Of a stretch of DNA of 64,000 bases, positions 44,048-64,000 are shown in pieces. Numbering within the stretch: the first letter of the stretch is position 1; each line of letters begins with the position of its first letter. The position numbers and the translations under genes are program-made. This DNA is from a virus: positions 60,716 through 124,715 of the IMG/VR virus record IMGVR_UViG_3300020450_000010, one strand, 5' to 3'. The notes beneath the pieces were generated by a model. It saw nothing but the letters and a program-made list of their open reading frames with translations. It did not search any database and was not told the DNA's origin.

Positions 44048-44305
44048 ATGGCAATAACAAAAACATATGCATACAAAAAAAGAACAGATGACTTTGGAGA
44101 TCTGTTGGGTATTGCACATAGAGTAACACTTGTAAAAGATGGCGTAACCAAAAAAATATCAGCACAAGAAGTCATAGGCGAAGCTGATGAGCTGGGTATT
44201 GCAACAATGACTGATGCTGAACTTTTAGCTCATTGTAAAACAATGTTTAGTGATGATATGATAGAAGCGGCATTTGACGTAGAAGATCCTCCAGCACCAA
44301 GTTAA
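44048..44305 (+). CDS. Small protein following a fibre gene
   Basis: 85 residues: a basic N-terminus (AITKTYAYKKRTDDFGDLLG), a short beta part and an acidic, helical C-terminus ending in EDPPAPS. It stands where other cassettes carry an assembly chaperone, and its PPAPS end echoes the PTPPS end of those chaperones. That end continues into the repeated promoter block. It is not clearly of the chaperone family; a fibre assembly or attachment role is inferred from position. Confidence 0.6.
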   Translation: MAITKTYAYKKRTDDFGDLLGIAHRVTLVKDGVTKKISAQEVIGEADELGIATMTDAELLAHCKTMFSDDMIEAAFDVEDPPAPS

Positions 44306-44340
44306 ACATAAATATGTATAATAGATAAGGTATACGTATG
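44303..44340 (+). promoter_or_regulatory. Repeated cassette promoter block (copy 1)
   Basis: Contains CATAAATA (44307-44314), TGTATA, AGATAAGG and the ATG of the next fibre. Nearly identical blocks stand at 52026, 54605, 56691 and 58762, with a more diverged one at 49015. It starts with the stop codon of the small gene before it. Confidence 0.85.
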
Positions 44341-46770
44341 GCTCTCAACAAACTAACAGCAGATGCACTAGTAGACGGCACACTTGATGCTGATGCTATT
44401 GGTACTGCTAGTGTAACACATCAAAAATTACATTCAAATATTATTAGTGGACAAACTGCAATTGGTACAGTTGATGCTAGTAACGACTTGCTATTAATTT
44501 ATGATAATAATGCAACCAGTTTGAAAAAAGTACCAGTATCAAGTGTAGGTGCTACAAATACCGATTCAATCACAGAAGGTAGTTCTAATCTATACTATAC
44601 AAATGCTAGGGCAGATGCAAGAGCTCAATTAAAAATAGATGCATTAGTTGACAGTGCTCCTGGTGCTCTTAACACATTAAATGAACTGGCGGCGGCATTG
44701 GGAGATGACGCAAATTTCTCTACCACCGTGACTAATAGTATAGCAACTAAACTACCACTAGCTGGTGGTACAATGAGCGGGGATATTGATGGCAACGGAA
44801 ATAAAGTCCTATTTGCAAATGTATACGCTCAATTAGCTGATTTACCAAGTGCGAGCACCTATCACGGAATGTTTGCTCATGTTCATGCTACCAACGCGGC
44901 TTATTATGCACATGCAGGTGCATGGGTACAATTAGCAGATAATAGTAATGTATTGCAACTTTCGGGTGGAACACTTACAGGCAATTTACAATTTGCTGGA
45001 GGAGGAACCGTAAGTTCAAACGGTGCATCCGACACAGTTGTTTTGTCAGGTTCTACGGCAGTAAACCTCGGAGGTAATATAACTTTACATGGACAAAGTC
45101 ATAGTAATGCAAGCCAGATATTCTTTAAAAATGGTTCAACTAATGCAATGACAATTGCAGGTGGTAAGGTTGGTATTGGTACAGCGAGTCCAAGTGCTCC
45201 TTTAGATGTAGTTGTTAATAATACTGTATATGTAGGAGAATTTATACAGCAAAATACTTCCAATGGAGATGGTGTACTTATACAGGTAGGTAGTACAGCG
45301 GCGGCTGACTATGCTTTAACAGTAAGGTCAGATGCTGGTAACACTTCTGTGTTGGCGGCTAAAGCAGATGGTAATGTTGGTATTGGAACTTTTACTCCTT
45401 CTTATAAACTGCATTCAGAAACATCAAGCGGTACAGATTATGCTGGATATTTTCGCAATACATCAGGTTCTGGAAATAGTACATCTTTGATTGCAAGAGG
45501 TGGCGCAAACAATACATCAGCTAACTTTCAAGTGCAAGACTATAATGGAAACGCTGATTTTACAGTGACTGGTGTAGGTAAGGTTGGTATTGGTAATACT
45601 GATCCAGGGCAACTCTTAGAAGTGACAGGATCAGGTGCTACAATAAGAGTTGAAAGTACAGACAACAATCCACAAGGTATTGAGTTTTATCAAACCAATA
45701 CTAAAAATGCAAGCATCATGTGGGGACAAGGTAATGCAAATTTAGAGATTAGAAATTTTAGAAATGATCAAAATGCTAATCATCTTTATGCTAACATTGA
45801 TTTTTTCACTGGTGGATCAAATGCAACTAGTCCAAATTACAATCCTGAACTAAGAATGAGAATTACAGATGACGGCACAATAGGAATAGGAGACTCAGAT
45901 CCTAAAGAAATGTTGGTTGTTACAGGCGGTGGAGCAGGACATGGATTATTACTAGGAGTCGTAGACACAGGCGGAAGTCAACCAACAGTTGGTACAGCTT
46001 TAGCAAGTATAGGATTCAAACACTACACAAGTGGGGCGACAAATAATAATGCTGACGCTAAAATTGATGCTGTGGTAGATTTATCAGATCATTCAGGTAC
46101 ATCAGCTGGTACAGCCCTGAGATTTTATACAAAACCTACAAGTACTGGTCCAGGAAGTGCTCCTACAGAAGCAGTAAAAATTACAGAAAATAAAAAGATT
46201 ATTCAAAATGGTGGCGGATATTATGCCGCACTCCATAACTCATCATCAGCTGGTTTTTATGGTGATGGAATTGGATTTGCAATGGGACCTGCATTTAGAA
46301 GTTCTAATTATTATTATGGTAATTCAACAGGTAGTTTTGATTTTGTGACAATGTATGCTAGTGGACATTGGGGAACAGGACATGAAGGATATCTTTGGCT
46401 TATCACAACATACTACAATCCAGGACATAGACTATATCACTTTGTACAACACAGAGGTGGACACATTACACTTAGTTTGATACATACCAGAGGTGAAAAT
46501 GGAGGTTGTACAGCATCAACTGTAACCAATACTTCAGGTGGAAATCACAGTGGACAAAGTGTAGCACAAAGCAGTATAAGAATTAGCAGTGGATTTACAT
46601 ATGAAAATCACTATGCGGTACTGCAATTCAATCATTCAGGAGCTTCAACTAGAGTATATGATAGTTCTAGTACTGCTTCGAATGTACAAACCAATGCTTA
46701 TTCAAATGGTAGTACTGTACACTTTCTATCAATGGGTGTACAAGGATATCCAGGGAGGGCTACAGCATAA
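44338..46770 (+). CDS. Tail fibre protein, cassette 1
   Basis: 810 residues. N-terminus MALNKLTADALVDGTLDADA, then NLYYTNARADARA, the APGALNTLNELAAALGDDAN module, the FANVYAQLADLPSASTYHGM module, and a shaft of VGIGT/VGIGN-x-P repeats from about residue 280 to 530. The last 200 residues are a unique tip rich in Gly, His, Tyr and Ser (GHEGYLWLITTYYNPGHRLY and following). No S74 chaperone motif is seen. The stop overlaps the start of a small gene as TAATG. It has its own late promoter. It is likely one of several alternative or co-assembled host-recognition fibres. Confidence 0.8.
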   Translation: MALNKLTADALVDGTLDADAIGTASVTHQKLHSNIISGQTAIGTVDASNDLLLIYDNNATSLKKVPVSSVGATNTDSITEGSSNLYYTNARADARAQLKIDALVDSAPGALNTLNELAAALGDDANFSTTVTNSIATKLPLAGGTMSGDIDGNGNKVLFANVYAQLADLPSASTYHGMFAHVHATNAAYYAHAGAWVQLADNSNVLQLSGGTLTGNLQFAGGGTVSSNGASDTVVLSGSTAVNLGGNITLHGQSHSNASQIFFKNGSTNAMTIAGGKVGIGTASPSAPLDVVVNNTVYVGEFIQQNTSNGDGVLIQVGSTAAADYALTVRSDAGNTSVLAAKADGNVGIGTFTPSYKLHSETSSGTDYAGYFRNTSGSGNSTSLIARGGANNTSANFQVQDYNGNADFTVTGVGKVGIGNTDPGQLLEVTGSGATIRVESTDNNPQGIEFYQTNTKNASIMWGQGNANLEIRNFRNDQNANHLYANIDFFTGGSNATSPNYNPELRMRITDDGTIGIGDSDPKEMLVVTGGGAGHGLLLGVVDTGGSQPTVGTALASIGFKHYTSGATNNNADAKIDAVVDLSDHSGTSAGTALRFYTKPTSTGPGSAPTEAVKITENKKIIQNGGGYYAALHNSSSAGFYGDGIGFAMGPAFRSSNYYYGNSTGSFDFVTMYASGHWGTGHEGYLWLITTYYNPGHRLYHFVQHRGGHITLSLIHTRGENGGCTASTVTNTSGGNHSGQSVAQSSIRISSGFTYENHYAVLQFNHSGASTRVYDSSSTASNVQTNAYSNGSTVHFLSMGVQGYPGRATA

Positions 46771-46997
46771 TGGAAAAAACAGTTTGGTTTTTTATTGATA
46801 GTGATGATAAAATGATACTTGCTTGTGACAGTTCTGATGGTTGTACACAAGAGTATGCAAAGAGAATTGAATACAACTATACAAAAGATTGTGTAGCTTT
46901 TGATTATATCGACGGATCTCCATATGGATATACAAATCAAGAGATGATAGATAGAATAGTAAGTGGTGAGTTAGTAGTGGAAGACTATGATCCATAA
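46770..46997 (+). CDS. Small acidic protein of cassette 1
   Basis: 75 residues, acidic, with two Cys (ILACDSSDGCTQ) and an aromatic segment (FDYIDGSPYGYTNQEM), ending VVEDYDP. Start coupled by TAATG to the fibre. It lacks the DW-x-YRQALRD pattern of the chaperones in later cassettes, so it is either another type of assembly factor or a small virion protein. The late promoter of the next cassette overlaps its stop codon. Confidence 0.6.
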   Translation: MEKTVWFFIDSDDKMILACDSSDGCTQEYAKRIEYNYTKDCVAFDYIDGSPYGYTNQEMIDRIVSGELVVEDYDP

Positions 46998-47000
46998 ATA
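46993..47000 (+). promoter_or_regulatory. Late promoter of cassette 2
   Basis: CATAAATA covering the TAA of the preceding gene, 18 bases before the ATG at 47019; AGGAAG serves as ribosome-binding site. It lacks the longer conserved block seen at other cassettes. Confidence 0.75.
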
Positions 47001-47018
47001 TTATGAACAGGAAGTTTT

Positions 47019-48725
47019 ATGTCAACTCTTAAGATAGAACATATTGCAAATATAGCAAACAGTGGACCTGACATCAGTATTGATACCAACGGTCACCTCA
47101 ACATTGTAAATGGAAGTTTACAAATGGGCGGTACCACCATGTTGGATACCAGTGACACAACACTTAAAAATGTAAGCAAAATAGGTATTGGTACTGCTAG
47201 TCCTGGATACAAATTACAAGTAGATCATGGAACTACGGCACAATATGCTAGTTCTATTAGAAACACAGCAGACAATTTACAATTACTGTTAGGAACTACA
47301 ACTGGCGGTTTGCTAAACATACAAGGTAAAACAATTAATTCAAATGCGGTTTATCAAATTTCATTACAATCTGAAGGAGGTAACGTTGGTATTGGAACTA
47401 CAACTACAGGTGCAAGAAAAGTCAGAATAGTTGGCAGTTCATCTGCTTATCCATTAGCACTTGATAGTACTGATACAGATTATCAGTTAGAATTTCAAAA
47501 AAATGGAACTTCTGAATGGTGGATTGCGGCAAGTGCTAGCAGTTTTAAAATACATGAAAACGGAGTAGGTGATAAACTAACTATACTATCAGGTGGCAAT
47601 GTTGGCATTGGTGTAACTAATCCGAGTGCTTATTACTCCAAGGATTTGGTTCTCGGTGCTGTTGATGAAGGAGGTATGACATTTGTTTCTGATCCTGCAC
47701 ACAGAGCTTATATTATGTTTGCAGATGGTGCTAGTGGCGGAAACGAAAGATACAGAGGACAAATTAGTTATGATCATGCAAATGATCAAATGTCTTTTAC
47801 TACAGCGGCAAGCACTGCCGTAACAATTGATAGCTCCGGTGATATTGGAGTGGGGGTTGTTCCGTATGCTAATGCAAGACTAACCATTGGTGGTGGTGAT
47901 GGCGGTGGATATCCAGCTGTATTAATGTATGATAATAATAACTCTAGTGGTGCTGAATTCTTTATGCTTGCCACAGACACAAATTGGGTAGCTGGCTCTA
48001 ATAAATTTATTATGGGACATGGCGCACCTTCTAGTGGTAATACTGATGTTACTATAGATAGTAATGGTTATGTTGGAATCAATACCACAAGTCCACAAAG
48101 AGCGTTACACATACATGATCATTCCGCAACTGGTTTACATATTACTAATACACAAAGTGGTGCTGGTGCTAATGATGGTTTTAGTCAATATATCAGAGAT
48201 GACAACCAAGCTACTGAATTAATGGTAAGAGAAAATAGCTATTTGGGTTTTGGAACCAATAATACACTACGAGCTAAAATTTTAAGTTCAGGTGAACTCT
48301 TTTGGCCTGAAATTAGTAATAGAGGAGATCTAACATTTCCTATTTGTAGTATCAGTAATAATGGTAGTGGTGGTCAATACTTACATGCACAGTTTCAATC
48401 ATATGGCGGAGTTATGTTACACATAAGTTTCAAAGGTTATGATTACACTGCAAATATTAAGAGTGGAAGTGGTGGAACATATGTTTATAACACAGCAGGT
48501 CAACAAGTAGGATATAGCAGAGCGTTTAGTGGAGATTGTGTAGAAGTATATCAAACCACAACAAATAGAGTTGAACTGGTGATTAACACAGGCGGAAGTG
48601 CTACTGGTAACAGATGGGGAAGCATGGTTTTCTTCGGAGGAACAGATACAATTACCGGTGATACTCCACTTACACTAGTGCAATACGGTTGGAATGGTAG
48701 CACATCAAGGATGTTTAGCTCATGA
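47019..48725 (+). CDS. Tail fibre protein, cassette 2
   Basis: 568 residues. Begins MSTLKIEHIANIANSGPDIS, followed by a shaft with IGIGTASPGYKLQV, VGIGTTTTGARKV, VGIGVTNPSAYY and VGINTTSPQRALHI repeats through about residue 365. The last 150 residues (from about LFWPEISNRGDLTFPICSIS) form a unique beta tip with GYDYTANIKSGSGGTYVYNT. The stop overlaps the next gene as ATGA. Same design as its neighbours: constant-type shaft, variable tip, small partner. Confidence 0.8.
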   Translation: MSTLKIEHIANIANSGPDISIDTNGHLNIVNGSLQMGGTTMLDTSDTTLKNVSKIGIGTASPGYKLQVDHGTTAQYASSIRNTADNLQLLLGTTTGGLLNIQGKTINSNAVYQISLQSEGGNVGIGTTTTGARKVRIVGSSSAYPLALDSTDTDYQLEFQKNGTSEWWIAASASSFKIHENGVGDKLTILSGGNVGIGVTNPSAYYSKDLVLGAVDEGGMTFVSDPAHRAYIMFADGASGGNERYRGQISYDHANDQMSFTTAASTAVTIDSSGDIGVGVVPYANARLTIGGGDGGGYPAVLMYDNNNSSGAEFFMLATDTNWVAGSNKFIMGHGAPSSGNTDVTIDSNGYVGINTTSPQRALHIHDHSATGLHITNTQSGAGANDGFSQYIRDDNQATELMVRENSYLGFGTNNTLRAKILSSGELFWPEISNRGDLTFPICSISNNGSGGQYLHAQFQSYGGVMLHISFKGYDYTANIKSGSGGTYVYNTAGQQVGYSRAFSGDCVEVYQTTTNRVELVINTGGSATGNRWGSMVFFGGTDTITGDTPLTLVQYGWNGSTSRMFSS

Positions 48726-49018
48726 CAAAAATGGTTACAAAAGCAGATGGCACAGTCAAGTATGTTGAAGATGCATTTTTAGACAGTGTTGTAGAAGAAA
48801 CTGATACTGTACAAGACATGCCTGTATTAGAACGCAGAGAACCTACAGCAGAAGAAATTGCTAATAATTTAGTAGCAGGTGATAATATCCGAGCTAGAAA
48901 ATATCTAGCAGATACAGATTGGTATGTAACTAGAAAAGCAGAAACAGGCAAAGATATACCAGATGATATCTTAACCAAAAGACAAGAAGCTAGAGAGAAA
49001 GTCAAGGCTATTGACTAA
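48722..49018 (+). CDS. Tail-fibre assembly chaperone-like protein, cassette 2
   Basis: 98 residues. The C-terminal half, NIRARKYLADTDWYVTRKAE with RQEAREK after a short gap, resembles the tail assembly chaperone pattern (R-x-x-L-x-x-TDW ... RQ-x-x-R) seen more fully in the proteins at 51724, 56455 and 58409. It lacks their VVWPTPPS ending. The start overlaps the fibre stop as ATGA; a second ATG lies three codons in. It probably helps the preceding fibre fold or trimerise. Confidence 0.62.
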   Translation: MTKMVTKADGTVKYVEDAFLDSVVEETDTVQDMPVLERREPTAEEIANNLVAGDNIRARKYLADTDWYVTRKAETGKDIPDDILTKRQEAREKVKAID

Positions 49019-49053
49019 ACATAAATATGTATAGCAAATAGGGATATATTATG
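49015..49053 (+). promoter_or_regulatory. Cassette promoter block (copy 2, diverged)
   Basis: CATAAATA at 49020-49027, then TGTATAGCAAATAGGGATAT before the ATG at 49051. The first half matches the other blocks exactly; the second half has several changes. Confidence 0.8.
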
Positions 49054-51189
49054 CCGTACATTGGACAAGGTCTTACTGAGGGTAGACGTAGAGCTCATAA
49101 TTTTGTAGCAACAGCAGGTCAGACTACATTTTCAGCAACGTATGATGCTGGATTCATAGATGTATATCAAAATGGTATTTTGCTTACTGCAAGTGATTAT
49201 ACAGCTACCAATGGTAACACAGTTGTATTGGGTGTTGGTGCTAGTGCTAATGATGAAATAACAATTATTGCACATCAAATCTTCAGTATTAGTGATACAG
49301 TTAGTGCGGGTCAAGGTGGCTCATTTGGTGGCGCTATAGATGTAACAGGCAATATAACAACCACAGGTAGTTTACAAGGTCCAAGCAGTTTTACAATAGA
49401 TCCTGCAACTCACGGTGATAACACAGGTACAGTAGTCATAGCAGGTGACTTGACGGTAAATGGTACTACTACAACAATTAATTCAACAACACTTACAGTA
49501 GACGACAAAAATATTATCATAGCAAGTGGTACTTCAAATAGCAGTACAGCAGATGGCAGTGGCTTAACAATTGATTTAGGCAGTGATGGTACAGCAACTA
49601 TGGTGTATACACATGCAACAACTAGTTTTGATTTTAATAAAGCCATAAAAGCAGATTTACTCAGTGTTGCTCGTGGCTCTGGCAGTCAAATGATTATCAG
49701 TAATACAAATAGTTCAGGAATACAAATTAAAGGTAATTGGATTAGATTACAAAAACCAGGTACTAATACTGATATGATTGTAGCAAAACCTGACGGGGAA
49801 GTTGAACTATATCACAGCGGAAGTCAAAAATTAGAAACTACTTCTACTGGAGTCACTGTTACTGGAAATTTACTTAATTCAGCCGCGACTCAAGGAAATG
49901 CTTTTGTAGCCAATACATCAAGTACATGGAACGCACTAGAAATATTTCAAGATAGAGGTGTTGCAAACAGTGCATCAGGCATAGCCTTTCGATCACAATC
50001 TGGAACTGCACCTGCTGGAATTGTTAGTGTAGCTTTGAACACAACAGGCGGAAGAGAAGAGCTAGCATTTTTAACAAGTATTGGTAATGTTACTAATGAA
50101 CGTATGCGTATTGATGAATCAGGCAATATTGGTATTGGTACAAATAGTCCTGCCGGTATACACAGTCTGGCTAAAGTTTTAGAAATATCTGGTGGAGATG
50201 GCGGCGACCTTATCATAGGAAATAATGCTTCTTCAAATATCGGAGCAGGTGCTCATATAGGGGCAATAGCTTTTAAAAACATAGATTCAAGCACTGGTAG
50301 TGTTCCGCACTATGCAGGAATAAGAAGTGAAGCAGTAGATACAAGCGGAAACATGGATCTTCGTTTTTATACAGGTACAGCAAATTTAGAAGCTGATACT
50401 CCTCAAGTATATGTGTCAACTGGTGGTCATGTAGGCATTGGTACAACTAATCCTGGAGGTACTCTTGAAGTCACCGGCAGTTCTTTTACCAATGATGATG
50501 CTATCAGAGCAATGAAGACAGGTGAATCATCATTTGGAATACAACCAAGAGATGACGGACTTGTAAGATTTTTAGTTAACCGAATAGATAGTGGTGGTAC
50601 ACATGGTAGTTATCAATTCAATACTAGAGATGGAGGAACAACCCTAACTAGGATGTCAATTGATAACTCTGGTAATTTTCTAATTGGTGACATTACTGCT
50701 CAACCATCAGGCAGTACTGGTGGTTCAGCGTTTATGAACTCTAGTCATGGTCGCAGAAATCTTTGGTTAGCAATGACTACAACCGCTGATAATTCTCTTG
50801 TAATCTTTGCTAATCCCAATGGCATTGTAGGGCAAATTAGAACTAGCGGATCAGGTACAACTTATGTCACTTCATCAGACAGACGATTAAAAGAAAATAT
50901 AATACCAATACAAGATGCTACTGAAAAGATATTGGCTATGAATCCTGTTTCACATACTTGGATAAAGGACAAAACTGCACCCGCACAACATGGTTTTATT
51001 GCACAAGAAATGCAATCTATTGTTCCTGAAGCTGTAAGCGGAGATGCAGACGGTGAAGAAATGATGCAGATGGATTATGGTAGACTTACACCTGTAATTG
51101 TTAAATCGCTACAAGATGCATTAAAAGAAATATCAAGTTTGAAACAACAGATAAGTAAATTAGAGGAAAAAATAAATGTCACTAAGTGA
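49051..51189 (+). CDS. Tail fibre with C-terminal S74 intramolecular chaperone, cassette 3
   Basis: 712 residues. N-terminus MPYIGQGLTEGRRRAHNFVA with a QTTFSATYDAGFIDVYQNGI beta domain that also opens the last fibre in the window. Then the IDPATHGDNTGTVVIAGDL block and a shaft with IGIGTNSPAGIHSL and VGIGTTNPGGTLEV repeats. Residues about 607-712 are a peptidase S74 (endosialidase-type chaperone) domain: S608-S-D-R-R-L-K614-E-N, then HGFIAQEMQSIVPEAV, ending in a coiled coil (LKQQISKLEEKIN). The domain folds the trimer and then cuts itself off, by family knowledge before the conserved Ser. The next gene starts 14 bases inside its end. Confidence 0.9.
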   Translation: MPYIGQGLTEGRRRAHNFVATAGQTTFSATYDAGFIDVYQNGILLTASDYTATNGNTVVLGVGASANDEITIIAHQIFSISDTVSAGQGGSFGGAIDVTGNITTTGSLQGPSSFTIDPATHGDNTGTVVIAGDLTVNGTTTTINSTTLTVDDKNIIIASGTSNSSTADGSGLTIDLGSDGTATMVYTHATTSFDFNKAIKADLLSVARGSGSQMIISNTNSSGIQIKGNWIRLQKPGTNTDMIVAKPDGEVELYHSGSQKLETTSTGVTVTGNLLNSAATQGNAFVANTSSTWNALEIFQDRGVANSASGIAFRSQSGTAPAGIVSVALNTTGGREELAFLTSIGNVTNERMRIDESGNIGIGTNSPAGIHSLAKVLEISGGDGGDLIIGNNASSNIGAGAHIGAIAFKNIDSSTGSVPHYAGIRSEAVDTSGNMDLRFYTGTANLEADTPQVYVSTGGHVGIGTTNPGGTLEVTGSSFTNDDAIRAMKTGESSFGIQPRDDGLVRFLVNRIDSGGTHGSYQFNTRDGGTTLTRMSIDNSGNFLIGDITAQPSGSTGGSAFMNSSHGRRNLWLAMTTTADNSLVIFANPNGIVGQIRTSGSGTTYVTSSDRRLKENIIPIQDATEKILAMNPVSHTWIKDKTAPAQHGFIAQEMQSIVPEAVSGDADGEEMMQMDYGRLTPVIVKSLQDALKEISSLKQQISKLEEKINVTK

Positions 51190-51724
51190 TTACAAAGTTG
51201 GACAATATGGTGGATATTATGACCATAGCGATTTAGCGAGTGCAAATCCTGTCCAAGGTTTTCCATTTCAACACACTCTTAATTTGTACACTTACCACGC
51301 AGGAGGAGGTAGCTACTATGCAAGGACTTGCAAACTTTGTAAATTCTCACCTAATCAAGGTCAGGAGCAACTTTATTCAGCAACCATTATTCGAAAAGGT
51401 GATTTAAATTATACCAATCAATATGCAGTTCTTGATGTATACATTGGTATCTGGTCCAGTCAATCTGGTAATTATAATTTTAATTGTAACGAAAGATTTG
51501 GTAATTCCGCAAATACATCAAGATTTGCTTTTGATTCAGATGGACAAGTTTGGTTTCATAATGATGGATTATGGTCACAATGGACTACTATCGTAGTTCA
51601 TAAGGTTCAAAATATAAGTTTTGCAGGGACAGGAGAATCACGTACTTATCATGACCATAGTAGCACATATCATAGTGTAGCTAGTGGTGCTAATCATCAA
51701 AGGGAATCAACTTGGGGTAGTTAA
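51176..51724 (+). CDS. Free-standing fibre-tip-like protein, cassette 3
   Basis: 182 residues. It overlaps the end of the S74 fibre by 14 bases in another frame. There is no shaft repeat; the whole chain has the Gly/Tyr/Ser/Asn/His-rich beta composition of the unique tips on other fibres here (FQHTLNLYTYHAGGGSYYAR; YHDHSSTYHSVASGANHQRE). Four Cys (CKLCKF, FNCNERF among others) are present. Because the upstream fibre loses its own C-terminus by self-cleavage, this protein could be a separate adhesin that caps the trimmed shaft. That is inference from order and composition. Confidence 0.62.
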   Translation: MSLSDYKVGQYGGYYDHSDLASANPVQGFPFQHTLNLYTYHAGGGSYYARTCKLCKFSPNQGQEQLYSATIIRKGDLNYTNQYAVLDVYIGIWSSQSGNYNFNCNERFGNSANTSRFAFDSDGQVWFHNDGLWSQWTTIVVHKVQNISFAGTGESRTYHDHSSTYHSVASGANHQRESTWGS

Positions 51725-52029
51725 TGGCAGAACAAAATTACACAGAAGAAGAAATAAAACTTACAATGATTGCACATGATTGTACAAGAGAAGAAGCAAT
51801 ATCTACGCATTGTGCAAGTGTACGAGCATCTCGTGAAGAACAAAGACCAATATTAGAGTTGCAACAACTTAGAGAAGTAAGAAATCGTATGATTACGCAA
51901 ACAGATTGGTGGGCAGGCGCCGATTTGACTATGACTCAAGAACAAAAAGACTATCGGCAAGCTCTTCGTGATATTACAAAAACGTATAAGTCAGTAAGAG
52001 ATGTAGTCTGGCCCACACCGCCTAGCTAA
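51724..52029 (+). CDS. Tail-fibre assembly chaperone, cassette 3
   Basis: 101 residues, start overlapping the previous stop as TAATG. C-terminal pattern LREVRNRMITQTDWWAGADL, then YRQALRDITKTYKSVRDVVW and PTPPS, is that of the phage tail assembly chaperone family, in which an R-x-x-L-x-x-TDW helix is followed by YRQALRD and a WP-x-x-P end. These proteins help fibres fold and are not part of the virion. Its last codons run into the repeated promoter block of the next cassette. Confidence 0.82.
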   Translation: MAEQNYTEEEIKLTMIAHDCTREEAISTHCASVRASREEQRPILELQQLREVRNRMITQTDWWAGADLTMTQEQKDYRQALRDITKTYKSVRDVVWPTPPS

Positions 52030-52064
52030 ACATAAATATGTATAACAGATAAGGTATACATATG
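52026..52064 (+). promoter_or_regulatory. Cassette promoter block (copy 3)
   Basis: CATAAATA at 52031-52038, AGATAAGG as likely ribosome-binding region, GTATACATATG at the start of the next fibre. Identical to the copy at 54605 over about 38 bases. Confidence 0.88.
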
Positions 52065-54308: not shown

Positions 54309-54329
54309 ATAATACAAACGGAGAAATAC

Positions 54330-54599: not shown

Positions 54600-54604
54600 T
54601 AAAT

Positions 54605-54643
54605 CTAAACATAAATATGTATAACAGATAAGGTATACATATG
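54605..54643 (+). promoter_or_regulatory. Cassette promoter block (copy 4)
   Basis: CATAAATA at 54610-54617 and the same 38-base block as at 52026, ending in the ATG at 54641. Confidence 0.88.
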
Positions 54644-56455: not shown

Positions 56456-56694
56456 TGTCAGAAGAAAATTTTTTACCAGAACCAACAGAAGAAATGTTAG
56501 CAGAGCATAACCTAGAAGCTCTTAGACAGTTAAGACAAAGATATCTTCAAGACACTGATTGGACACAAATGCCTGACAGTCCACTTAGTGAAGAGAAAAA
56601 AACTGAATGGCAAACATATAGACAAGCACTCAGAGATATAACAATAACTGCAACCAGTTGTAGTGATGTTGTCTGGCCAGACACCCCAAGTTAA
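56455..56694 (+). CDS. Tail-fibre assembly chaperone, cassette 5
   Basis: 79 residues with LRQLRQRYLQDTDWTQMPDS, then YRQALRDITITATSCSDVVW and PDTPS. It is of the same family as the proteins at 51724 and 58409 and shares their C-terminus almost letter for letter, while the N-termini differ. The conserved end borders the repeated promoter block, so the homologous segment spans the gene boundary. Confidence 0.83.
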   Translation: MSEENFLPEPTEEMLAEHNLEALRQLRQRYLQDTDWTQMPDSPLSEEKKTEWQTYRQALRDITITATSCSDVVWPDTPS

Positions 56695-56729
56695 ACATAA
56701 ATATGTATAGCAGATAAGGTATACATATG
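56691..56729 (+). promoter_or_regulatory. Cassette promoter block (copy 5)
   Basis: CATAAATA at 56696-56703, TGTATAGCAGATAAGG, then ATACATATG. It differs from the copies at 52026 and 54605 at only a few bases. Confidence 0.88.
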
Positions 56730-58409
56730 AGCAATGCACGTAATTTAGGAAACATCACCACAGGCGGAGCCGTTGGTGCAACTACAGCAAGTGTTAACAC
56801 TTCAGTTGCAAATCTAGTAGATAGTGCACCAGGTACACTGAATACATTAAATGAACTAGCGGCGGCACTGGGTGATGATGCAAACTTCTCAACTACTGTA
56901 ACAAATTCAATTGCAACTAAGTTGCCACTAGCTGGTGGTACACTGACAGGTAATCTAGCACATACAGGTAATTTAACAATTGACGTAGTTGGAGACATCA
57001 CTCTTGATGCTGGTGGTGGTGACATTTTACTCAAAGATGATGGAGCACATTGGGCTTCTATATACACAAACGGAACAAATACCTACATTCAAAATATGGT
57101 TAATTCTGGAGATTTGTATCTAGCTGGTAAAGATGGTAGTGGTAATGGAGTTAATGCTCTTGTAATTGATATGTCGGCAGGCGGAGCCGTTGGTATTGGT
57201 GAAACTAGTCCTCAAAATATATTGCATATTAAAACCAGTGCGGCAGGAGGCCCGCAAATAGAATTAGATTCAACTAGTGGTACAGCTAATAGTGCATTTA
57301 TTAACTTTGACGGTACTAGTTTGCAATTAGCTACACAAAGAGATATGGTAGATGGCAGTAAACGTGATACTGCTAAAAGTTGGGGTGGCATTAATATTGT
57401 TGGAGAGGCGGCAGGATCTTACATTCAGTTTCAAACAAGTGAAGGCAATAATAATTCTGTTACAACAAAAATGACATTAACCAAAGAAGGAGATGTAGGC
57501 ATTGGAGCTACAAATCCTGGTGGTTCTAAACTTTATTTACAAGATACTCATACTACCACTGTGACTAATGCTAGTACTCTAATAGGCAACACAACATTAA
57601 CTATTAACGGTAACTCCAGTCAAGGTTCTGATGTAATGCGAGTTGGGCCGATGGGTACGGCAGGCAAATACTTTATAGATGTTTCTAACAGTGGCGCTAC
57701 TGCCAATTACGATCTTTTATTAAATCCAGTTAGCAAAGGTAAAGTTGGTATTGGTACAACCAGTGCTGTTGCGTCTCTTCATGTGGCCAAGTCATCAACA
57801 CCAGCAGTAAATACAAACGCTACAGAAACCGTTGTAGCTTTTGCCGTAGATGGAAATGAACATGGACACATCAGAGCTCACGCAACAACTATGAACTCTG
57901 GTCTAAGAGCTACTTTATACGATACAGATGGAAGCAGTGATTCTTTTGGTTATGGTATTCATGGCTATAATACTAAATTCGTAGATATCGGTAGAGCTGA
58001 CCAAGGTAATTATTATGATGGGTCCAGTGGTGACGGAAGATATACAGGCGGATTGACTTACAACACAAGATACACTAGATGGTTTTCATTCGGCGGACAA
58101 ATACTTGGTAACAACACATATTATCCTATTGCTTACAATATGAATGAATCTAAGTTTACAATTGAATGTTTTTGTGGAGATGCTAGCTCAAGAGACTATA
58201 AAAAATATGTAGGTTATTATACATCACCAGCTTATGGTGTTTATGGACTAACACAAGTAATTCATATGAATGGAGGATGGAACAGTGGCGGCTTTGACAT
58301 GCGAGTATCTGCTCCAAATGGTAATTTAAGTATTGATTTGAGATTTCAGTCGTACTATAATTCATCAAATGTAGCGAGCTACAAGTGTGTTTTTAGGGGT
58401 TTTATATAA
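56727..58409 (+). CDS. Tail fibre protein, cassette 6
   Basis: 560 residues. The N-terminal 70 residues contain LVDSAPGTLNTLNELAAALG and NSIATKLPLAGGTLTGNLAH, a module also found in the fibres at 33266, 42569 and 44338. Shaft repeats are VGIGETSPQNILHI, VGIGATNPGGSKLY and VGIGTTSAVASLHV. The last 120 residues form a unique tip (YTRWFSFGGQILGNNTYYPI; ECFCGDASSRDYKKYVGYYT). The stop overlaps the chaperone start as TAATG. Confidence 0.8.
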   Translation: MSNARNLGNITTGGAVGATTASVNTSVANLVDSAPGTLNTLNELAAALGDDANFSTTVTNSIATKLPLAGGTLTGNLAHTGNLTIDVVGDITLDAGGGDILLKDDGAHWASIYTNGTNTYIQNMVNSGDLYLAGKDGSGNGVNALVIDMSAGGAVGIGETSPQNILHIKTSAAGGPQIELDSTSGTANSAFINFDGTSLQLATQRDMVDGSKRDTAKSWGGINIVGEAAGSYIQFQTSEGNNNSVTTKMTLTKEGDVGIGATNPGGSKLYLQDTHTTTVTNASTLIGNTTLTINGNSSQGSDVMRVGPMGTAGKYFIDVSNSGATANYDLLLNPVSKGKVGIGTTSAVASLHVAKSSTPAVNTNATETVVAFAVDGNEHGHIRAHATTMNSGLRATLYDTDGSSDSFGYGIHGYNTKFVDIGRADQGNYYDGSSGDGRYTGGLTYNTRYTRWFSFGGQILGNNTYYPIAYNMNESKFTIECFCGDASSRDYKKYVGYYTSPAYGVYGLTQVIHMNGGWNSGGFDMRVSAPNGNLSIDLRFQSYYNSSNVASYKCVFRGFI

Positions 58410-58765
58410 TGATTAATGAAAGCGTAGGATATCTATACATAGATGCAGTGCTTGCACTAGTGCCACTTGCAAAATTTTATCCATCTGATGACGGAACTTA
58501 TGAAAATATTGAATGGGTTGACGAAAGAACACAACCAACAGCAAAAGCAGTTGCTGATAAATTAGCTGAACTTAAAACCACTGAAGGTTTATATTATGTG
58601 CGTAAACAAAGGGATATATTGATTGCAGAAACTGACTGGGTATCAGGTGAAGATGTGCCTCAAGTTCTTAAAGACAAGTGGTATGATTATAGACAAGCAC
58701 TAAGAGATATTACAAAAACATATACATCACTAGAAGATGTAGTATGGCCCACACCTCCTAGTTAA
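58409..58765 (+). CDS. Tail-fibre assembly chaperone, cassette 6
   Basis: 118 residues, the longest of this family here. An N-terminal part (YLYIDAVLALVPLAKFYPSD) precedes the common C-terminus YYVRKQRDILIAETDWVSGE, then YDYRQALRDITKTYTSLEDV and VWPTPPS. The extra N-terminal region may give specificity for its own fibre. It ends at the next promoter block. Confidence 0.83.
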   Translation: MINESVGYLYIDAVLALVPLAKFYPSDDGTYENIEWVDERTQPTAKAVADKLAELKTTEGLYYVRKQRDILIAETDWVSGEDVPQVLKDKWYDYRQALRDITKTYTSLEDVVWPTPPS

Positions 58766-58801
58766 ACATAAATATGTATAGCAGATAAAGGCATACATAT
58801 G
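58762..58801 (+). promoter_or_regulatory. Cassette promoter block (copy 6)
   Basis: CATAAATA at 58767-58774, TGTATAGCAGATAAAGGC, then ATACATATG; one base longer than the other copies. Confidence 0.87.
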
Positions 58802-61348
58802 AGCAAAGCATTAGAACTTTCACAATTAGCAAATGACATAACCTATACCGAAGGAACTGACACACTCAGTTTTGGTCAAGCCAATTTGCAGATTGGCAGT
58901 AATGCACTTTTATCTAACAATTTATATAGTGGTGACTTAACAGTTGCTAGTAATGGTGTAGTAACTCTTGCTACTGTAAACAGCAATGTTGGAAGTTTTG
59001 GTAGTGGATCAGCTATACCAGTTGTAACTGTTAACGCAAAAGGTTTAGTTACCGCAGTAAGCACACAAGCTGTAAACATTGTAAGCACTACAGACATTGC
59101 AGGTGACAGTGGTACAGACACTATTACACTAGGCACTGACACACTTACCTTTGCTGGTGGTACAGGATTAACCAGCACAGTAACCAACAACAACGTAAGT
59201 ATAGCATTAGATAATACGGCTGTTAGTGCAGGCAGTTATGGTGGTTCAACAGCAATACCTGTAATTACCATAGATGCACAAGGCAGAATCACAGCCGCAA
59301 GTACAAGTTCAATTAACACAGATTTAGTAAGTGACACATCACCACAGCTAGGTGGTAATTTAGAATCAAATTCATTTGATATACTTCTAGCTGACAATGA
59401 TAAAATTTCATTGGGTACAGGTGAAAGAGGATATTTACGGCACACTGGTGCTAGTGGTAAAGTACAACTTTTTAGTACTGTTGGCGGTATTGATATTAGA
59501 ACAACTGCTAACGATGAAACTATTGCAATTAGTTCTGATGATGGCAGTGGCGGTATAGCAAATTACATTATAGCTGACGGTTCAACTGGTGCAACTGAAT
59601 TATATTTTTATGGTTCTAAGAAATTAGAAACCACTACAGGTGGTATTACAGTAACAGGTACAGTAAATGGTCATACTATTCCAGGTGGTACAGGCACACT
59701 TGCTTTAACCAGTAACATACCTACTGATACAGATGGACTGTCAGAAGGTAGTAGTAATTTATATTACACTGATGCTAGAGCTGATGCAAGAATTACAAAT
59801 GCATTAGGCGGTAATGTAACAATTACAGGTAACTTAACTGTAAACGGCACAACCACTTCTGTAAATTCAAATACTGTAAACATTGGCGATAACATAATTG
59901 TACTGAACAGTGACGAAACAGGAACACCTAGTCAAAACGCAGGCATTGAAATTGAACGTGGTACTAGTACAAATGTTAGTTTGCGTTTTAACGAAACCAC
60001 AGACAAATGGCAGTTTACAAACGATGGAACAACATATGCAGACATAGGCGATGGCGGTGATGTAGTAGACGACACAACTCCACAACTAGGTGGTGACCTC
60101 GATGTAAATGGCAATAAAATTGACATGGATGGTAATGAACTTATATTGGATGCTGATGGTGATACAAGTATTACAGCTGATACTGATGATCAAATACATT
60201 TCAAAATAGGCGGATATGATGCAGTAACAATGGCTCATAGTGCTACAGATTATACTACTATGAAAATATATGCCCCACTTGATAATTCATTTGCATCACC
60301 ACAAATAGCTTTAATTAAAGATTCATCAAGTCCAGCAAATTGGGATTATAATGGAGTACTGTCCTTTAGGGCAAATGATAGTGCATCAAACGAAACAACA
60401 TATGCACAACTTATTGGAAGAACTGTAAATGTTTCAAATGGAAGTGAAGAAGGTGCACTAAACTTTTTTGTTACAGCAGGTGGATCCAGTCAAATAAACA
60501 CAGTTTTGTATGATACAAAAATCCAATTATTAAGGGAACAAACATTAGAATGGTATCAACACAAAGGTACATCTTATACTAATGTTTTAGATTGGGCAAC
60601 TCCAACAGCAGACAGAACAGTCACACTTCCAGATGCCACTGGTACAGTAGCATTAACCAGTGATTTTACTGGAAGTGCAAACCATGCGTTTAGACAAATC
60701 AGTGATGGATCAAATCAAGCAGTAGCAGACAGTAACATAGATACATTTATAGTAACAGCAGGCACAGATATAAGTGCAGTGGTGACACCAGCCAGTGATA
60801 CATTAACAATTACAAACACCAGTACGCTTGACAGTGTCACTACCAGAGGTGCAACAACAAACACAAGTATACTATTTCCTGATAATGTAAAAGCACGTTT
60901 TGGTGATACAAGTTCACCAGACATGGAAATATATCATGACGGTTCAAACAGTTATATAGATGACACAGGCACAGGTAGTATTTTTATACGCAGTGGTACA
61001 ACTTACATACAAAATGCCTCAGGTACGAAAACTGCTATGGCAACAAACAGTGGTGCAGAACAAACACTTTATCACAACAACAATCCTAAGTTTGCTACGT
61101 CAGCTACAGGTATTGCAGTTACAGGTGATGTAGATGTAAGCACAGGACACATTGTCAGAGGCACACAACATTTTGATGGTGGTGCAACTGGTGGTGCAGG
61201 TGATATGGCATTTTTAGAAACTGACAATACAGTGAACAATAATTATTCAATAAGTAGTAATAGAAATGCAATGACTGTAGGACCTGTGACAGTAGCAAGT
61301 GGTGCAACAGTTACAGTACCAAGCGGACAACGATGGATAATTTTATAA
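58799..61348 (+). CDS. Long tail fibre protein, cassette 7 (shaft type)
   Basis: 849 residues. Begins MSKALELSQLANDITYTEGT. It contains two TDTITLGTDTLxFxGGTGLT stalk repeats like those in the giant fibre, NLYYTDARADARI, GNLTVNGTTTSVNSNTVNIG, TTPQLGGDLDVNGNKIDMDG and TADRTVTLPDATGTVALTSD. The last 60 residues are a short GPVTVASGATVTVPSGQRW ending, seen on many marine phage fibres, with no large tip. It is followed after one base by a second fibre gene, so the two may form one appendage (shaft and tip halves). Confidence 0.8.
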   Translation: MSKALELSQLANDITYTEGTDTLSFGQANLQIGSNALLSNNLYSGDLTVASNGVVTLATVNSNVGSFGSGSAIPVVTVNAKGLVTAVSTQAVNIVSTTDIAGDSGTDTITLGTDTLTFAGGTGLTSTVTNNNVSIALDNTAVSAGSYGGSTAIPVITIDAQGRITAASTSSINTDLVSDTSPQLGGNLESNSFDILLADNDKISLGTGERGYLRHTGASGKVQLFSTVGGIDIRTTANDETIAISSDDGSGGIANYIIADGSTGATELYFYGSKKLETTTGGITVTGTVNGHTIPGGTGTLALTSNIPTDTDGLSEGSSNLYYTDARADARITNALGGNVTITGNLTVNGTTTSVNSNTVNIGDNIIVLNSDETGTPSQNAGIEIERGTSTNVSLRFNETTDKWQFTNDGTTYADIGDGGDVVDDTTPQLGGDLDVNGNKIDMDGNELILDADGDTSITADTDDQIHFKIGGYDAVTMAHSATDYTTMKIYAPLDNSFASPQIALIKDSSSPANWDYNGVLSFRANDSASNETTYAQLIGRTVNVSNGSEEGALNFFVTAGGSSQINTVLYDTKIQLLREQTLEWYQHKGTSYTNVLDWATPTADRTVTLPDATGTVALTSDFTGSANHAFRQISDGSNQAVADSNIDTFIVTAGTDISAVVTPASDTLTITNTSTLDSVTTRGATTNTSILFPDNVKARFGDTSSPDMEIYHDGSNSYIDDTGTGSIFIRSGTTYIQNASGTKTAMATNSGAEQTLYHNNNPKFATSATGIAVTGDVDVSTGHIVRGTQHFDGGATGGAGDMAFLETDNTVNNNYSISSNRNAMTVGPVTVASGATVTVPSGQRWIIL

Positions 61349-61349
61349 T

Positions 61350-63329
61350 ATGAGCAAAGTAAGAATATACGGTGACACTAGTGGATATGTAGACATAGCT
61401 GTACCAGCAGTGGCAGGTACAACTACACTTAACTTGGATAAAATACCACAAGCAGATATTAGTGGCAATATTGCAATGGATACTGATACACTATATATAG
61501 ATGCGGCGAACAATCGTGTTGGTATTGGTACATCAAGTCCTGGTTTTCCTCTGAGTGTGGAAAAAGATAATAGCACTTGGGTGTCTCGCATCTACAATAC
61601 AGGCTCTGATGCTGATGCTTCAGGGTTGCTTGTGCGTACAGATGCTACCTCATCACATGATGCCCTTGCTCTTGGCGTATATGCTGACAGCGGTTACAAA
61701 ATGGTCGTAAGATCAACTGGTAATGTTGGTATTGGTACAAATGCTCCTGCTACAAGTTATGGTAAAGTTTTACAAATTCACGACACTGGAACTGGTGGTG
61801 CAAATTTACGATTGACTGATGCAACCAGTGGTGCAGGAACCGGACAGGGCATGGATATAATCCAGCTTGGCGTAGATAGTTATTTTATTAACCGCGAAGC
61901 AGGAGATGTAAATTTTTATACAAATGGTCAAGAAAGAATTACAATACACGCTGATGGACATCTAGGTTTTGGTGACGGTATATTAAACGACAGTCCTTGG
62001 TCTAATGTGTTTGGTGCAAGAAGTCAATGGGATACTATGGGTACTATTGCGGCTACTAATGGTAGTATGCAAATAGGACACAATTGGTATTATGATGCAG
62101 GTGGATCAACAGGATACAAATATATAGCTGGTGGTAAAGCCAACCGAACGGTTCATGTGAATGATTACATCAGTTGGGAAATGACCAATAGCACAGGCAG
62201 TGCTGGCGGTGAGATTACATTTGTGGAAGTAATGAAACTGACAGCAGATGGTAAACTTGGTATTGGAGTTTCTAATCCTTTTGCTGATTTAACTGTTGGA
62301 ACAAGCACAGCATTTACTAATGGTGACAACTATGTTGCGGCTGTTTTCCAACCAGCTATAAGTGGTGGTGAATCAGCGGGTATGTTATTCGGACATTATC
62401 CTGCAAGTGGATATGCTAAACAAGGAATATTCTGGGAAAGATATGTGGGTGCAACTGGATCCGGCGGTCAAGGCAAACTACACTTTGTAAACAGAGCGGC
62501 AACCGATACCAGTGTTCCAACAATTGCTGATACTAGAATGACAATAGATCATCTCGGCAACGTTGGTATTGGTACGACTAGTCCTGGAGCAAAACTAACC
62601 ATCACTGATGAAAATGCTGGACAGGCTAGTATGCAAGTACGTAACTTTAACACTAGTGCAACAGGATCATTTACAAACAACTACAATGTAGAAATAAGAT
62701 CAGCTACATCTACTACCACACATGGAATGTTAATTCATTTAAATGAAAATAATATAGGCAGAAGAACTTTAGATATAGCTGACAGTGTTGGCGCTCAAGG
62801 TGACACAATTTTTGCAAGTTTTGTTCAAGGCAAAGTAGGTATTAACAATACATCACCACTAGGTCAATTGGACATTGTAGTTCCACAAGACAAAGTGCCT
62901 CTTGTGATACGATCAGGTGGTAAATCCAATATAGGTTACAATGCTGGTCATGTCATGCACTGTCATAACAGTGTTAGTTCGTCTGGTACTTGGTATGATG
63001 TGTGTTATGTAAGTCACTCTCCTAATATTTTTATTCTTGGGTCTACTGTACAAAATGGCAGTGCTCATTTGGGTGGTTCAAGATGGTGCAGTAGAATGTA
63101 CGGAACCTATGGCAGTGTAGCACACACAACTTTTGGTGGTGGAACAAGAACTGTTGCAATGAATGGCGGTGCGATTACAGGAATGGATTATAGATACTTA
63201 AACGGTGGCGCATCATCTGGTTCTTATAGACTACAGGTTTATGTAACTTGGAGTGGATCGGTAAGTAGCATGGAAGTTTATACCACAGTGATTGGAAATG
63301 GTAGTGATACGCTACAGGAGGACAACTAA
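61350..63329 (+). CDS. Tail fibre protein with tip, cassette 7 second gene
   Basis: 659 residues. Begins MSKVRIYGDTSGYVDIAVPA. The shaft has VGIGTSSPGFPLSV, VGIGTNAPATSYGK, LGIGVSNPFADLTV, VGIGTTSPGAKLTI and VGINNTSPLGQLDI repeats. The last 150 residues (NIGYNAGHVMHCHNSVSSSG; SRWCSRMYGTYGSVAHTTFG) form a unique tip with several Cys and His. It has no promoter of its own and depends on the one at 58762. The stop overlaps the next start as TAATG, after a strong GGAGG ribosome-binding site. Confidence 0.8.
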   Translation: MSKVRIYGDTSGYVDIAVPAVAGTTTLNLDKIPQADISGNIAMDTDTLYIDAANNRVGIGTSSPGFPLSVEKDNSTWVSRIYNTGSDADASGLLVRTDATSSHDALALGVYADSGYKMVVRSTGNVGIGTNAPATSYGKVLQIHDTGTGGANLRLTDATSGAGTGQGMDIIQLGVDSYFINREAGDVNFYTNGQERITIHADGHLGFGDGILNDSPWSNVFGARSQWDTMGTIAATNGSMQIGHNWYYDAGGSTGYKYIAGGKANRTVHVNDYISWEMTNSTGSAGGEITFVEVMKLTADGKLGIGVSNPFADLTVGTSTAFTNGDNYVAAVFQPAISGGESAGMLFGHYPASGYAKQGIFWERYVGATGSGGQGKLHFVNRAATDTSVPTIADTRMTIDHLGNVGIGTTSPGAKLTITDENAGQASMQVRNFNTSATGSFTNNYNVEIRSATSTTTHGMLIHLNENNIGRRTLDIADSVGAQGDTIFASFVQGKVGINNTSPLGQLDIVVPQDKVPLVIRSGGKSNIGYNAGHVMHCHNSVSSSGTWYDVCYVSHSPNIFILGSTVQNGSAHLGGSRWCSRMYGTYGSVAHTTFGGGTRTVAMNGGAITGMDYRYLNGGASSGSYRLQVYVTWSGSVSSMEVYTTVIGNGSDTLQEDN

Positions 63330-63583
63330 TGGCTGAAACAACAACTATAGACACACATACACTAGAACTTATACCAGAAGAACACAGAGCAAATGCTACT
63401 TCATATGAAGTACCAGATGCATTATGGACACAAAAGGATGTAGATTGGGGAAAAATAAAAGAAGGTAAAAAAGTTGGAGACGTAAGAGAACCAGCACATA
63501 CTAGATATACTGTAACATACACAGAAAAAGACCCTGAACTAGTAGCTTTAGAAAAAAGAATTGCAGACCTCGAAGCCAAGTAA
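63329..63583 (+). CDS. Small protein ending cassette 7
   Basis: 84 residues: a beta N-terminal half (TTIDTHTLELIPEEHRANAT), a basic middle (WGKIKEGKKVGDVREPAHTR) and a C-terminal helix (DPELVALEKRIADLEAK). It lacks the YRQALRD pattern of the chaperones but occupies the same place after a fibre. It has a strong ribosome-binding site. It may be an assembly factor or tail tip accessory; I do not recognise the family. Confidence 0.62.
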   Translation: MAETTTIDTHTLELIPEEHRANATSYEVPDALWTQKDVDWGKIKEGKKVGDVREPAHTRYTVTYTEKDPELVALEKRIADLEAK

Positions 63584-63588
63584 TCTTA

Positions 63589-63596
63589 TATAAATA
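63589..63596 (+). promoter_or_regulatory. Late promoter of cassette 8
   Basis: TATAAATA followed by TGTGTAAC, 21 bases before the ATG at 63618; AAAGGAA is the ribosome-binding site. It has the exact T4 late consensus, but not the longer conserved block. Confidence 0.85.
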
Positions 63597-63617
63597 TGTG
63601 TAACAAAGGAATATTCT

Positions 63618-64000
63618 ATGCCATATTTAGGTAATCGTCCAGACAACATTGTTATACGAAACGCACAACAAGAATTCAATTACACTGCTACCAGCAGTCA
63701 AACAACGTTCACTGGTTTAGATACTAACAACAATACACTAGCATATAATCCTGGAAATGTCGAGGTATTTTTTAATGGTGCCAGACTTGAAGAAGCAGAT
63801 TTTACAGCGACAAACGGTACTAGCATTGTGCTTGCTTCAGCCGCCGCTACAAATGATTTAGTAAGTATTGTATCAACTGATGTTTTTGAAGTTACTGATA
63901 CAGTAAGTAGACAAAATGGTGGTACATTTATTGGTGATGTAACCATGTCTGGGAACTTGACTGTAAATGGCACAACCACTTCTGTCAATTCCAATGAAGT
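63618..64000 (+). CDS. Tail fibre-like protein, 5' part only, cassette 8
   Basis: The frame opens at the ATG at 63618 and runs past the window end (127 codons seen). Its N-terminus MPYLGNRPDNIVIRNAQQEF is followed by TATSSQTTFTGLDTNNN and FFNGARLEEADFTATNGTSI, the same opening beta domain as in the S74 fibre at 49051, and then by GNLTVNGTTTSVNSN, a module shared with the fibre at 58799. The fibre array thus continues to the right of the window. Confidence 0.8.
   Translation, partial: MPYLGNRPDNIVIRNAQQEFNYTATSSQTTFTGLDTNNNTLAYNPGNVEVFFNGARLEEADFTATNGTSIVLASAAATNDLVSIVSTDVFEVTDTVSRQNGGTFIGDVTMSGNLTVNGTTTSVNSNE

What the first reader, a model, noticed from the sequence alone, without database searches (positions are those of the whole stretch)
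44303..64000. Tandem array of promoter-fibre-partner cassettes
Eight successive units each begin with a NATAAATA late promoter and a long fibre gene; seven complete units end in a small protein, of recognisable assembly-chaperone type in three and similar in a fourth. Fibres share N-terminal and shaft modules but each has a different C-terminal tip. This is far more fibre genes than T4's long and short fibres need. It looks like a modular adhesin system: several fibres on one virion, or a library of alternatives exchanged by recombination.
Basis: partly seen in the sequence, partly recalled or inferred. Interest (0 to 1): 0.82.

Follow-up and report, generated by a model that had tools for sequence, protein, structure and literature searches.

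The report
Phage fibre cassettes with swappable tips
A marine T4-type phage carries a row of at least eight late-expressed tail-fibre cassettes, most with a different kind of attachment end and with a receptor-binding tip that appears to be swapped between phages together with a dedicated small helper protein.

Summary
Eight fibre genes at 44,338-64,000 each follow an ATAAATA late-promoter core. The seven complete units end in a small ORF: three are PF16778 tail-fibre chaperones, a fourth is PHROG 'tail fiber assembly'-like, three are unassigned. An extra cassette without its own promoter (d-e, 42,569-44,305) lies upstream. The last unit is cut by the contig end.

Related contigs show cassette exchange: the array differs in size, order and content between conserved flanks. 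(1) Tips are inherited with their partner, not with their N-terminus. (2) Each N-terminal type occurs at most once per phage but recurs between phages (0 within, 34 between; P=0.0004). (3) Similarity blocks break at an array-specific promoter-start-codon seam (10 of 41 ends; 0.66 expected). The unassigned partner s4 belongs to a family tied to C1q-like tips (46/46 long fibres, against 1/27 before PF16778 chaperones).

Best reading: many different fibres built together on one virion, with tip+partner modules reassorted between phages. This is a new variant of known multi-receptor-binding-protein systems. No virion data exist; co-display is inferred.

The parts
42569..44038 (+). fibre d (489 aa), first cassette; no promoter of its own
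   Evidence: N-terminal type T0; tip and partner recur together in G004 on another N-terminus
44048..44305 (+). partner e (85 aa), unassigned
   Evidence: 95% identical relative behind the same tip in G004
44303..44340 (+). seam 1: end of partner, ATAAATA late promoter core (44308), leader, start codon
44338..46770 (+). fibre F1 (810 aa), type T1
   Evidence: PHROG tail fibre modules; T1 N-terminus in G002, 94-97% identical segment in G001 with another tip and partner
46770..46997 (+). partner s1 (75 aa), unassigned
   Evidence: no convincing family, no relative in fetched loci
46994..47000 (+). promoter core of F2 (lacks the extended block)
47019..48725 (+). fibre F2 (568 aa), type T2
   Evidence: PHROG tail fibre; T2 N-terminus in G001 and G002
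48722..49018 (+). partner s2 (98 aa), tail-fibre-assembly-like
   Evidence: phrog_4912 E 2e-8; 80% relative behind the F2-like tip in G004
49016..49053 (+). seam 3 with promoter core 49021
49051..51189 (+). fibre F3 (712 aa), type T3, with intramolecular S74 chaperone domain (aa 609-662)
   Evidence: Peptidase_S74 59.3 bits, cut-off 22; match to 6f45, long tail fibre distal subunit
51176..51724 (+). x3 (182 aa), separately encoded tip-like protein
   Evidence: 87% and 74-75% relatives, always after an S74 domain and before an s3-like partner; model failed
51724..52029 (+). partner s3 (101 aa), PF16778 chaperone
   Evidence: 36.9 bits, cut-off 26.6
52027..52064 (+). seam 4 with promoter core 52032
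52062..54308 (+). fibre F4 (748 aa), type T4, C1q-like tip (aa 639-747)
   Evidence: C1q 23.5 bits, cut-off 23.7; collagen X C1q domain 1gr3 E 0.005
54330..54599 (+). partner s4 (89 aa), helical family linked to C1q-like tips
   Evidence: 46 of 46 long upstream fibres end in C1q-like domain; AF2 pLDDT 90.8, helical
54606..54643 (+). seam 5 with promoter core 54611
54641..56455 (+). fibre F5 (604 aa), type T5
   Evidence: PHROG tail fibre; T5 in G001, G002
56455..56694 (+). partner s5 (79 aa), PF16778 chaperone
   Evidence: 68.8 bits, cut-off 26.6
56692..56729 (+). seam 6 with promoter core 56697
56727..58409 (+). fibre F6 (560 aa), type T6
   Evidence: PHROG tail fibre; T6 in G001, G002
58409..58765 (+). 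partner s6 (118 aa), PF16778 chaperone
   Evidence: 52.8 bits, cut-off 26.6
58763..58801 (+). seam 7 with promoter core 58768
58799..61348 (+). fibre F7 (849 aa), type T7, probably a proximal fibre part
   Evidence: followed by T7b in both G000 and G002; C-terminus shared widely
61350..63329 (+). fibre F7b (659 aa), second fibre gene of unit 7
   Evidence: PHROG tail fibre
63329..63583 (+). partner s7 (84 aa), unassigned
   Evidence: 77% relative behind the F7b-like tip on a T3 fibre in G002
63585..63620 (+). seam 8 with promoter core 63590
63618..64000 (+). fibre F8, type T8, cut by the contig end after 127 aa
   Evidence: 98% identical over these 127 aa to the N-terminus of the 487-aa G001 gene

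Best explanation
This is an expandable late-gene array that encodes many different tail fibres for one virion of a T4-type marine myophage. A typical transcription unit reads: late promoter and leader; a fibre whose N-terminus is one of about fifteen attachment types that do not repeat within a phage; a shaft of shared repeat modules; a receptor-binding tip; and a small partner that folds, trimerises or caps that tip (PF16778 chaperones, an S74 domain inside the fibre, or, by inference, the helical s4 family for C1q-like tips). Because N-terminal types do not repeat within a phage, the fibres most likely occupy different attachment sites, or different places in one branched appendage, and are made at the same time. 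Tip and partner move together between phages. Joints fall at the promoter-start-codon seam, whose conserved sequence offers homology for recombination, and at shaft/tip borders. Shown here: cassette anatomy, chaperone and S74 assignments, tip-partner linkage, non-redundant N-termini, joints at the seam, variation in array size and order. Inferred: display on the virion, the N-terminus as attachment end, s4 as chaperone or cap, homologous recombination as the cause of the joints.
For: Promoter before each of 8 units. PF16778 in s3, s5, s6; S74 in F3. Tip homology goes with partner homology (11 of 17 pairs, 4.1 expected, p 0.0034), N-terminal homology does not (5 of 31, p 0.92). No homologous N-termini within a phage against 34 pairs between phages, P 0.0004. 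Ends of DNA similarity blocks in the seam: 10 of 41, 0.66 expected; no excess at tip-partner borders. Array-specific extended seam, 48.9 against 25.3 bits. Array size and order vary between conserved flanks. s4 linked to C1q-like tips. No recombinase or reverse transcriptase in the contig.
Against: No proteomics or microscopy. Non-redundant N-termini could also arise because identical repeats are deleted by recombination. The F2 promoter lacks the extended seam block. Six of 17 tip-homologous pairs have unrelated partners (all involve one of two short stand-alone C1q proteins). In other marine phages near-identical PF16778 partners serve very different tips, so partner specificity is by tip class at most there. 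The contig is a fragment and only five arrays were compared.
Confidence: 0.6

Rival explanations
1. The genes are mostly subunits of one long composite or branched appendage with fixed places (as T4 gp34-gp37, or RaK2's nine-protein fibre), not many separate fibres.
For: Non-redundant N-terminal types fit fixed places. F7 and F7b stay together in G000 and G002. RaK2's nine clustered fibre proteins are proposed to form one branched fibre network (PMC10253068).
Against: Sets and order change between relatives and one relative has a single fibre between the same flanks, which a rigid assembly would not easily tolerate. No T4 gp10-like branching domain was found in the fibres by sequence, apart from a weak match in F7.
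Confidence: 0.22
2. A within-genome library: only one or a few fibres are used at a time and the others are stored alternatives brought into use by recombination.
For: More fibre genes than T4 needs; conserved direct-repeat seams would allow deletion or shuffling.
Against: Each unit has its own intact promoter and all ORFs are open. All units point the same way, so inversion between seams is impossible, and no resolvase, integrase or reverse transcriptase was found in the contig. N-termini are not interchangeable copies of each other.
Confidence: 0.08
3. A passive pile-up: fibre genes gained by recombination and not yet lost, most of them without function.
For: Array size varies strongly between relatives.
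Against: ORFs, promoters, partners and tip-partner pairing are kept; N-terminal types recur in phages from different samples at 60-98% identity.
Confidence: 0.06
4. Assembly artefact: strains of one population were joined into a false array.
For: Repeated seams and modules break assemblies; the contig ends inside the array.
Against: Contigs from four other samples show arrays of the same kind with other orders; neighbour groups such as F3-x3-s3-F4 and F7-F7b recur.
Confidence: 0.04

Closest known systems
RaK2 / phiK64-1 (Alcyoneusvirus) and phiKp24 multi-fibre adsorption complexes (PMC10253068, PMC9700779)
   Same: Many different fibre proteins of one T4-related large phage, nine of them in a ~19-kb cluster in RaK2, all found in the virion; portal of this phage is closest to that wider group.
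   Different: RaK2's cluster has no small partner genes between its fibres and lies on both strands. RaK2 fibres carry beta-helix depolymerase and CBA120-like branching domains; none was detected here by sequence.
Alteromonas phages A5 / V22 fibre + cognate chaperone modules shared across families (PMC10579305, PMC7289586)
   Same: A fibre tip and its chaperone are shared between unrelated phages as one module.
   Different: One fibre-chaperone pair per phage there; here eight or more, on non-redundant N-termini, with a shared seam. Chaperones there are DUF4376, here PF16778 and unassigned families.
Methylophilales phage Melnitz (MZ577097; PMC9004378)
   Same: Marine T4-type phage with a string of fibre-like genes and small ORFs beside the baseplate genes, two of them annotated tail assembly chaperone.
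   Different: Genes are shorter and mostly unannotated; no cassette structure is described, and the paper reports identical host ranges for the variants.
T4-like gp37 with intramolecular chaperone plus gp38 adhesin (Salmonella phage S16, 6f45)
   Same: F3's S74-containing C-terminus matches 6f45 and is followed by a separately encoded tip-like protein, x3.
   Different: x3 has no detectable relation to gp38, and a PF16778 partner follows.
Metaviromic islands with C1q and tail-fibre genes in marine phages (PMC3909814)
   Same: C1q-like tips and tail fibres are the hypervariable part of marine phage genomes.
   Different: That study describes variation at these genes; no partner family, docking roster or seam is described in the passages read.

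Membership tests
PF16778 Phage_tail_APC (s3, s5, s6) | Score above the Pfam gathering cut-off, small ORF directly after a fibre | tested here: met
   36.9, 68.8, 52.8 bits against 26.6; three places in the contig, all in the array
PF16778 Phage_tail_APC (s1, s2, s4, s7, e) | Score above the Pfam gathering cut-off | tested here: not met
   No PF16778 match; s2 matches only PHROG tail fiber assembly
Peptidase_S74 intramolecular chaperone (F3) | S74 domain at the C-terminus of a fibre | tested here: met
   59.3 bits against 22
Peptidase_S74 intramolecular chaperone (F3) | Self-cleavage after trimerisation | not testable with these tools
   Needs expression
C1q domain (F4 tip) | Score above the Pfam gathering cut-off | tested here: inconclusive
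   23.5 against 23.7 bits; nine of ten upstream proteins of s4 relatives are above it; 1gr3 E 0.005
RaK2/CBA120-type branched fibre complex | T4 gp10-like / CBA120 D1-D2-XD branching domains in the N-termini | tested here: inconclusive
   Not found by Pfam or PHROGs except a weak F7 match; in RaK2 they were recognised by structure comparison (PMC10253068)
RaK2/CBA120-type branched fibre complex | Beta-helix depolymerase domains in most fibres | tested here: not met
   No such family in any fibre
Diversity-generating retroelement | Reverse transcriptase near the variable gene | tested here: not met
   No RVT_1 in the 124.7-kb contig; the contig is incomplete
Invertible fibre cassettes (Mu Gin type) | Invertase and inverted cassettes | tested here: not met
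   No resolvase or integrase in the contig; all units in one orientation
T4-type late promoters | TATAAATA-like core shortly before late structural genes | tested here: met
   8 of 8 fibre units
T4-type late promoters | gp55/gp33/gp45 late transcription proteins in the same genome | not tested
   Not looked for; contig incomplete

The most novel reading that the evidence does not exclude
A 'universal socket' fibre system: a roster of non-redundant attachment types, each fitted with an exchangeable tip+partner cartridge; an array-specific promoter-leader block is maintained as the recombination seam; and a previously unrecognised helical protein family (s4) is the dedicated folding or capping partner of C1q-like phage tips across phage families.
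Probability: 0.3. Interest if true: 0.75.

Novelty: new variant of a known kind. Interest (0 to 1): 0.58.

Why it matters
It gives a readable natural example of how a large marine phage may build many adhesins at once and refit them from a pool shared with unrelated phages: the exchanged unit is tip plus helper, and the joints can be seen. It also points to a widespread unassigned helper family for C1q-like tips, which are common in the hypervariable islands of marine phages; co-expressing the right helper may be what makes such tips foldable in the laboratory.

Tried and rejected
Near-identical DNA in cultured phages: none. Variation driven by a recombinase or reverse transcriptase: no gene in the contig. 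Idea that the N-terminal half of the PF16778 chaperone swaps with the tip while the C-terminal half stays: seen for s3 against its G002 counterpart but not carried by the wider set (Spearman 0.15 against 0.08); not claimed. Structure of x3: model failed, pLDDT 30.6. Fold of s4: confident model but no match in the viral or PDB libraries. RaK2-type identity: not filed, no depolymerase domains and no partner genes in RaK2. Scans with the single partners e and x3 found almost no relatives, so those pairs rest on few examples.
Full report
WHAT IS THERE. The window is the last 64 kb of a 124,715-bp viral contig. Its portal protein is closest to those of the RaK2 / PA5oct / Atu_ph07 / GAP32 group of jumbo T4-relatives (49-54% identity), and baseplate genes of T4 type lie in the window. 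At 44,338-64,000 eight fibre units lie in one direction. Each is preceded by an ATAAATA core 25-31 nt before the ATG; the array has eight such cores on the + strand and none on the - strand. The seven complete units end in a small ORF that overlaps or closely follows the fibre. s3, s5 and s6 pass the PF16778 cut-off; s2 is tail-fibre-assembly-like by PHROGs; s1, s4 and s7 are unassigned.

RELATIVES. Pattern and portal scans gave related contigs. The most useful are G001-G003 (array contigs) and G004-G006 and G009 (with flanks). Between the same flanking genes there is a single 1,026-aa gene in G006, about five fibre-like genes in G005 and about eight in G004; downstream genes (106-108 aa, about 1,550-1,580 aa) keep 60-91% identity between these phages. 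G001-G003 carry arrays of the same kind in other orders. By N-terminal type, G000 reads T0-T1-T2-T3-T4-T5-T6-T7-T7b-T8; G001, after a cut F1-like gene, T5-T6-T8-T9-T10-T2-T3-T4; G002 T11-T2-T7-T7b-T5-T3-T6-T1-T8-T12-T9.

TIP AND PARTNER TRAVEL TOGETHER. I compared 25 cassettes (300 pairs) for the first 60 aa of the fibre, the last 130 aa of the tip, and the partner. Of 17 pairs with homologous tips, 11 have homologous partners (4.1 expected under shuffling, p=0.0034), yet only 2 have homologous N-termini. Of 31 pairs with homologous N-termini only 5 share partners (7.5 expected, p=0.92). Clear cases: d tip + e on another N-terminus in G004 (94% identical over 670 bp, ending at the next ATG); F2 tip + s2 on another N-terminus in G004; F7b tip + s7 on a T3 N-terminus in G002; and in reverse a 94-97% identical F1 N-terminal segment in G001 that carries another tip and another partner. 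All six exceptions involve one of two short stand-alone C1q proteins that are followed by PF16778 chaperones.

A PARTNER FAMILY FOR C1q-LIKE TIPS. s4 has 171 relatives in viral contigs. Where a long fibre (at least 300 aa) stands directly upstream, it ends in a C1q-like domain in 46 of 46 cases, against 1 of 27 for PF16778 partners. Pfam's own C1q model is above cut-off in nine of ten upstream proteins tested, among them the cultured phages DC33 and S-SRM01, and one of the ten has a T7-type tail-fibre N-terminus. The predicted s4 structure is all-helical with high confidence (pLDDT 90.8) and matches nothing known. A chaperone or cap role is inferred from position and linkage only. Likewise S74 + x3 + s3 occurs in an unrelated phage on a 42-kb contig with another gene order, so modules cross phage types.

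N-TERMINI ARE NON-REDUNDANT. With the first 40 aa, 34 pairs of fibres from different phages are homologous and none from the same phage (6.6 within-phage pairs expected, P=0.0004). This is what fibres with separate attachment sites, made together, would show. It is also what would remain if identical repeats were deleted by recombination, so it is support and not proof.

JOINTS SIT AT A SEAM. Ends of DNA similarity blocks (at least 150 bp, 80% identity) fall in the promoter-ATG seam in 10 of 41 cases; 0.66 are expected and no shift of the seam positions gave more than 4. Tip-partner borders show no excess (1 of 41). The array seam (consensus about TTAAACATAAATATGTATARCAGATAAGGTATACATATG) carries 48.9 bits over 46 columns; other ATAAATA promoters in the same phages carry 25.3. 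The 17-base core of it occurs six times in the contig, all in the array. The extended block is therefore more than a late promoter core. Whether it is kept as recombination homology, as a strong leader, or simply by descent is open.

COMPARISON. Multi-fibre virions are known: RaK2 has nine fibre proteins in a ~19-kb cluster, found in the virion (PMC10253068), and phiKp24 has fourteen (PMC9700779). Fibre-chaperone modules shared by unrelated phages are known (PMC10579305). C1q tips in hypervariable islands of marine phages are known (PMC3909814). ATAAATA late promoters in RaK2-like phages are known (PMC5259590). What I did not find described in the papers searched is the combination: an expandable array of separately promoted cassettes with a shared seam, non-redundant attachment types, exchangeable tip+partner units, and the s4-C1q pairing. 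The RaK2 cluster has no partner genes, and no depolymerase domain was found here, so this is not filed as a member of that system.

LIMITS. The contigs are metagenomic fragments and five arrays were compared. The statistics treat cassettes as independent although the phages are related. Gene calls are mechanical. No expression, proteomic or structural data exist for this phage.

Noticed in passing
G000:C1:6354-53865, - strand, upstream of the window (loci L007-L009): A long run of 200-550-aa genes with at least six radical-SAM-like proteins, a Nol-like carbamoyltransferase and two TauD/TfdA dioxygenases: looks like a biosynthetic island unusual for a phage; many neighbours match no family.
   Followed up: partly
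G000:C1:53889-65915 (-), window 1-5200: A 4,008-aa ORF runs from before the window to 5,200; not examined.
   Followed up: no
window 42261-42569: Gene c (102 aa) has 88 relatives in the fetched loci; a similar small gene stands beside the fibre genes of the unrelated phage L134. A small structural protein of unknown role.
   Followed up: no
window 35813-41149: The 1,778-aa structural gene before the array holds internal direct repeats (84% over 511 bp); the contig of a phage with an identical portal protein ends inside this gene.
   Followed up: no
seams, e.g. window 44307-44318: The seam holds a short inverted repeat ACATA-AA-TATGT centred on the promoter core; function unknown.
   Followed up: no
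L098/L296 and L100/L300 (G001-G003): The T8 fibre is followed by three small stand-alone tip genes and a 136-aa chaperone, the layout also seen in small marine siphophages (L134): fibres split into a docking protein plus separate tips.
   Followed up: partly
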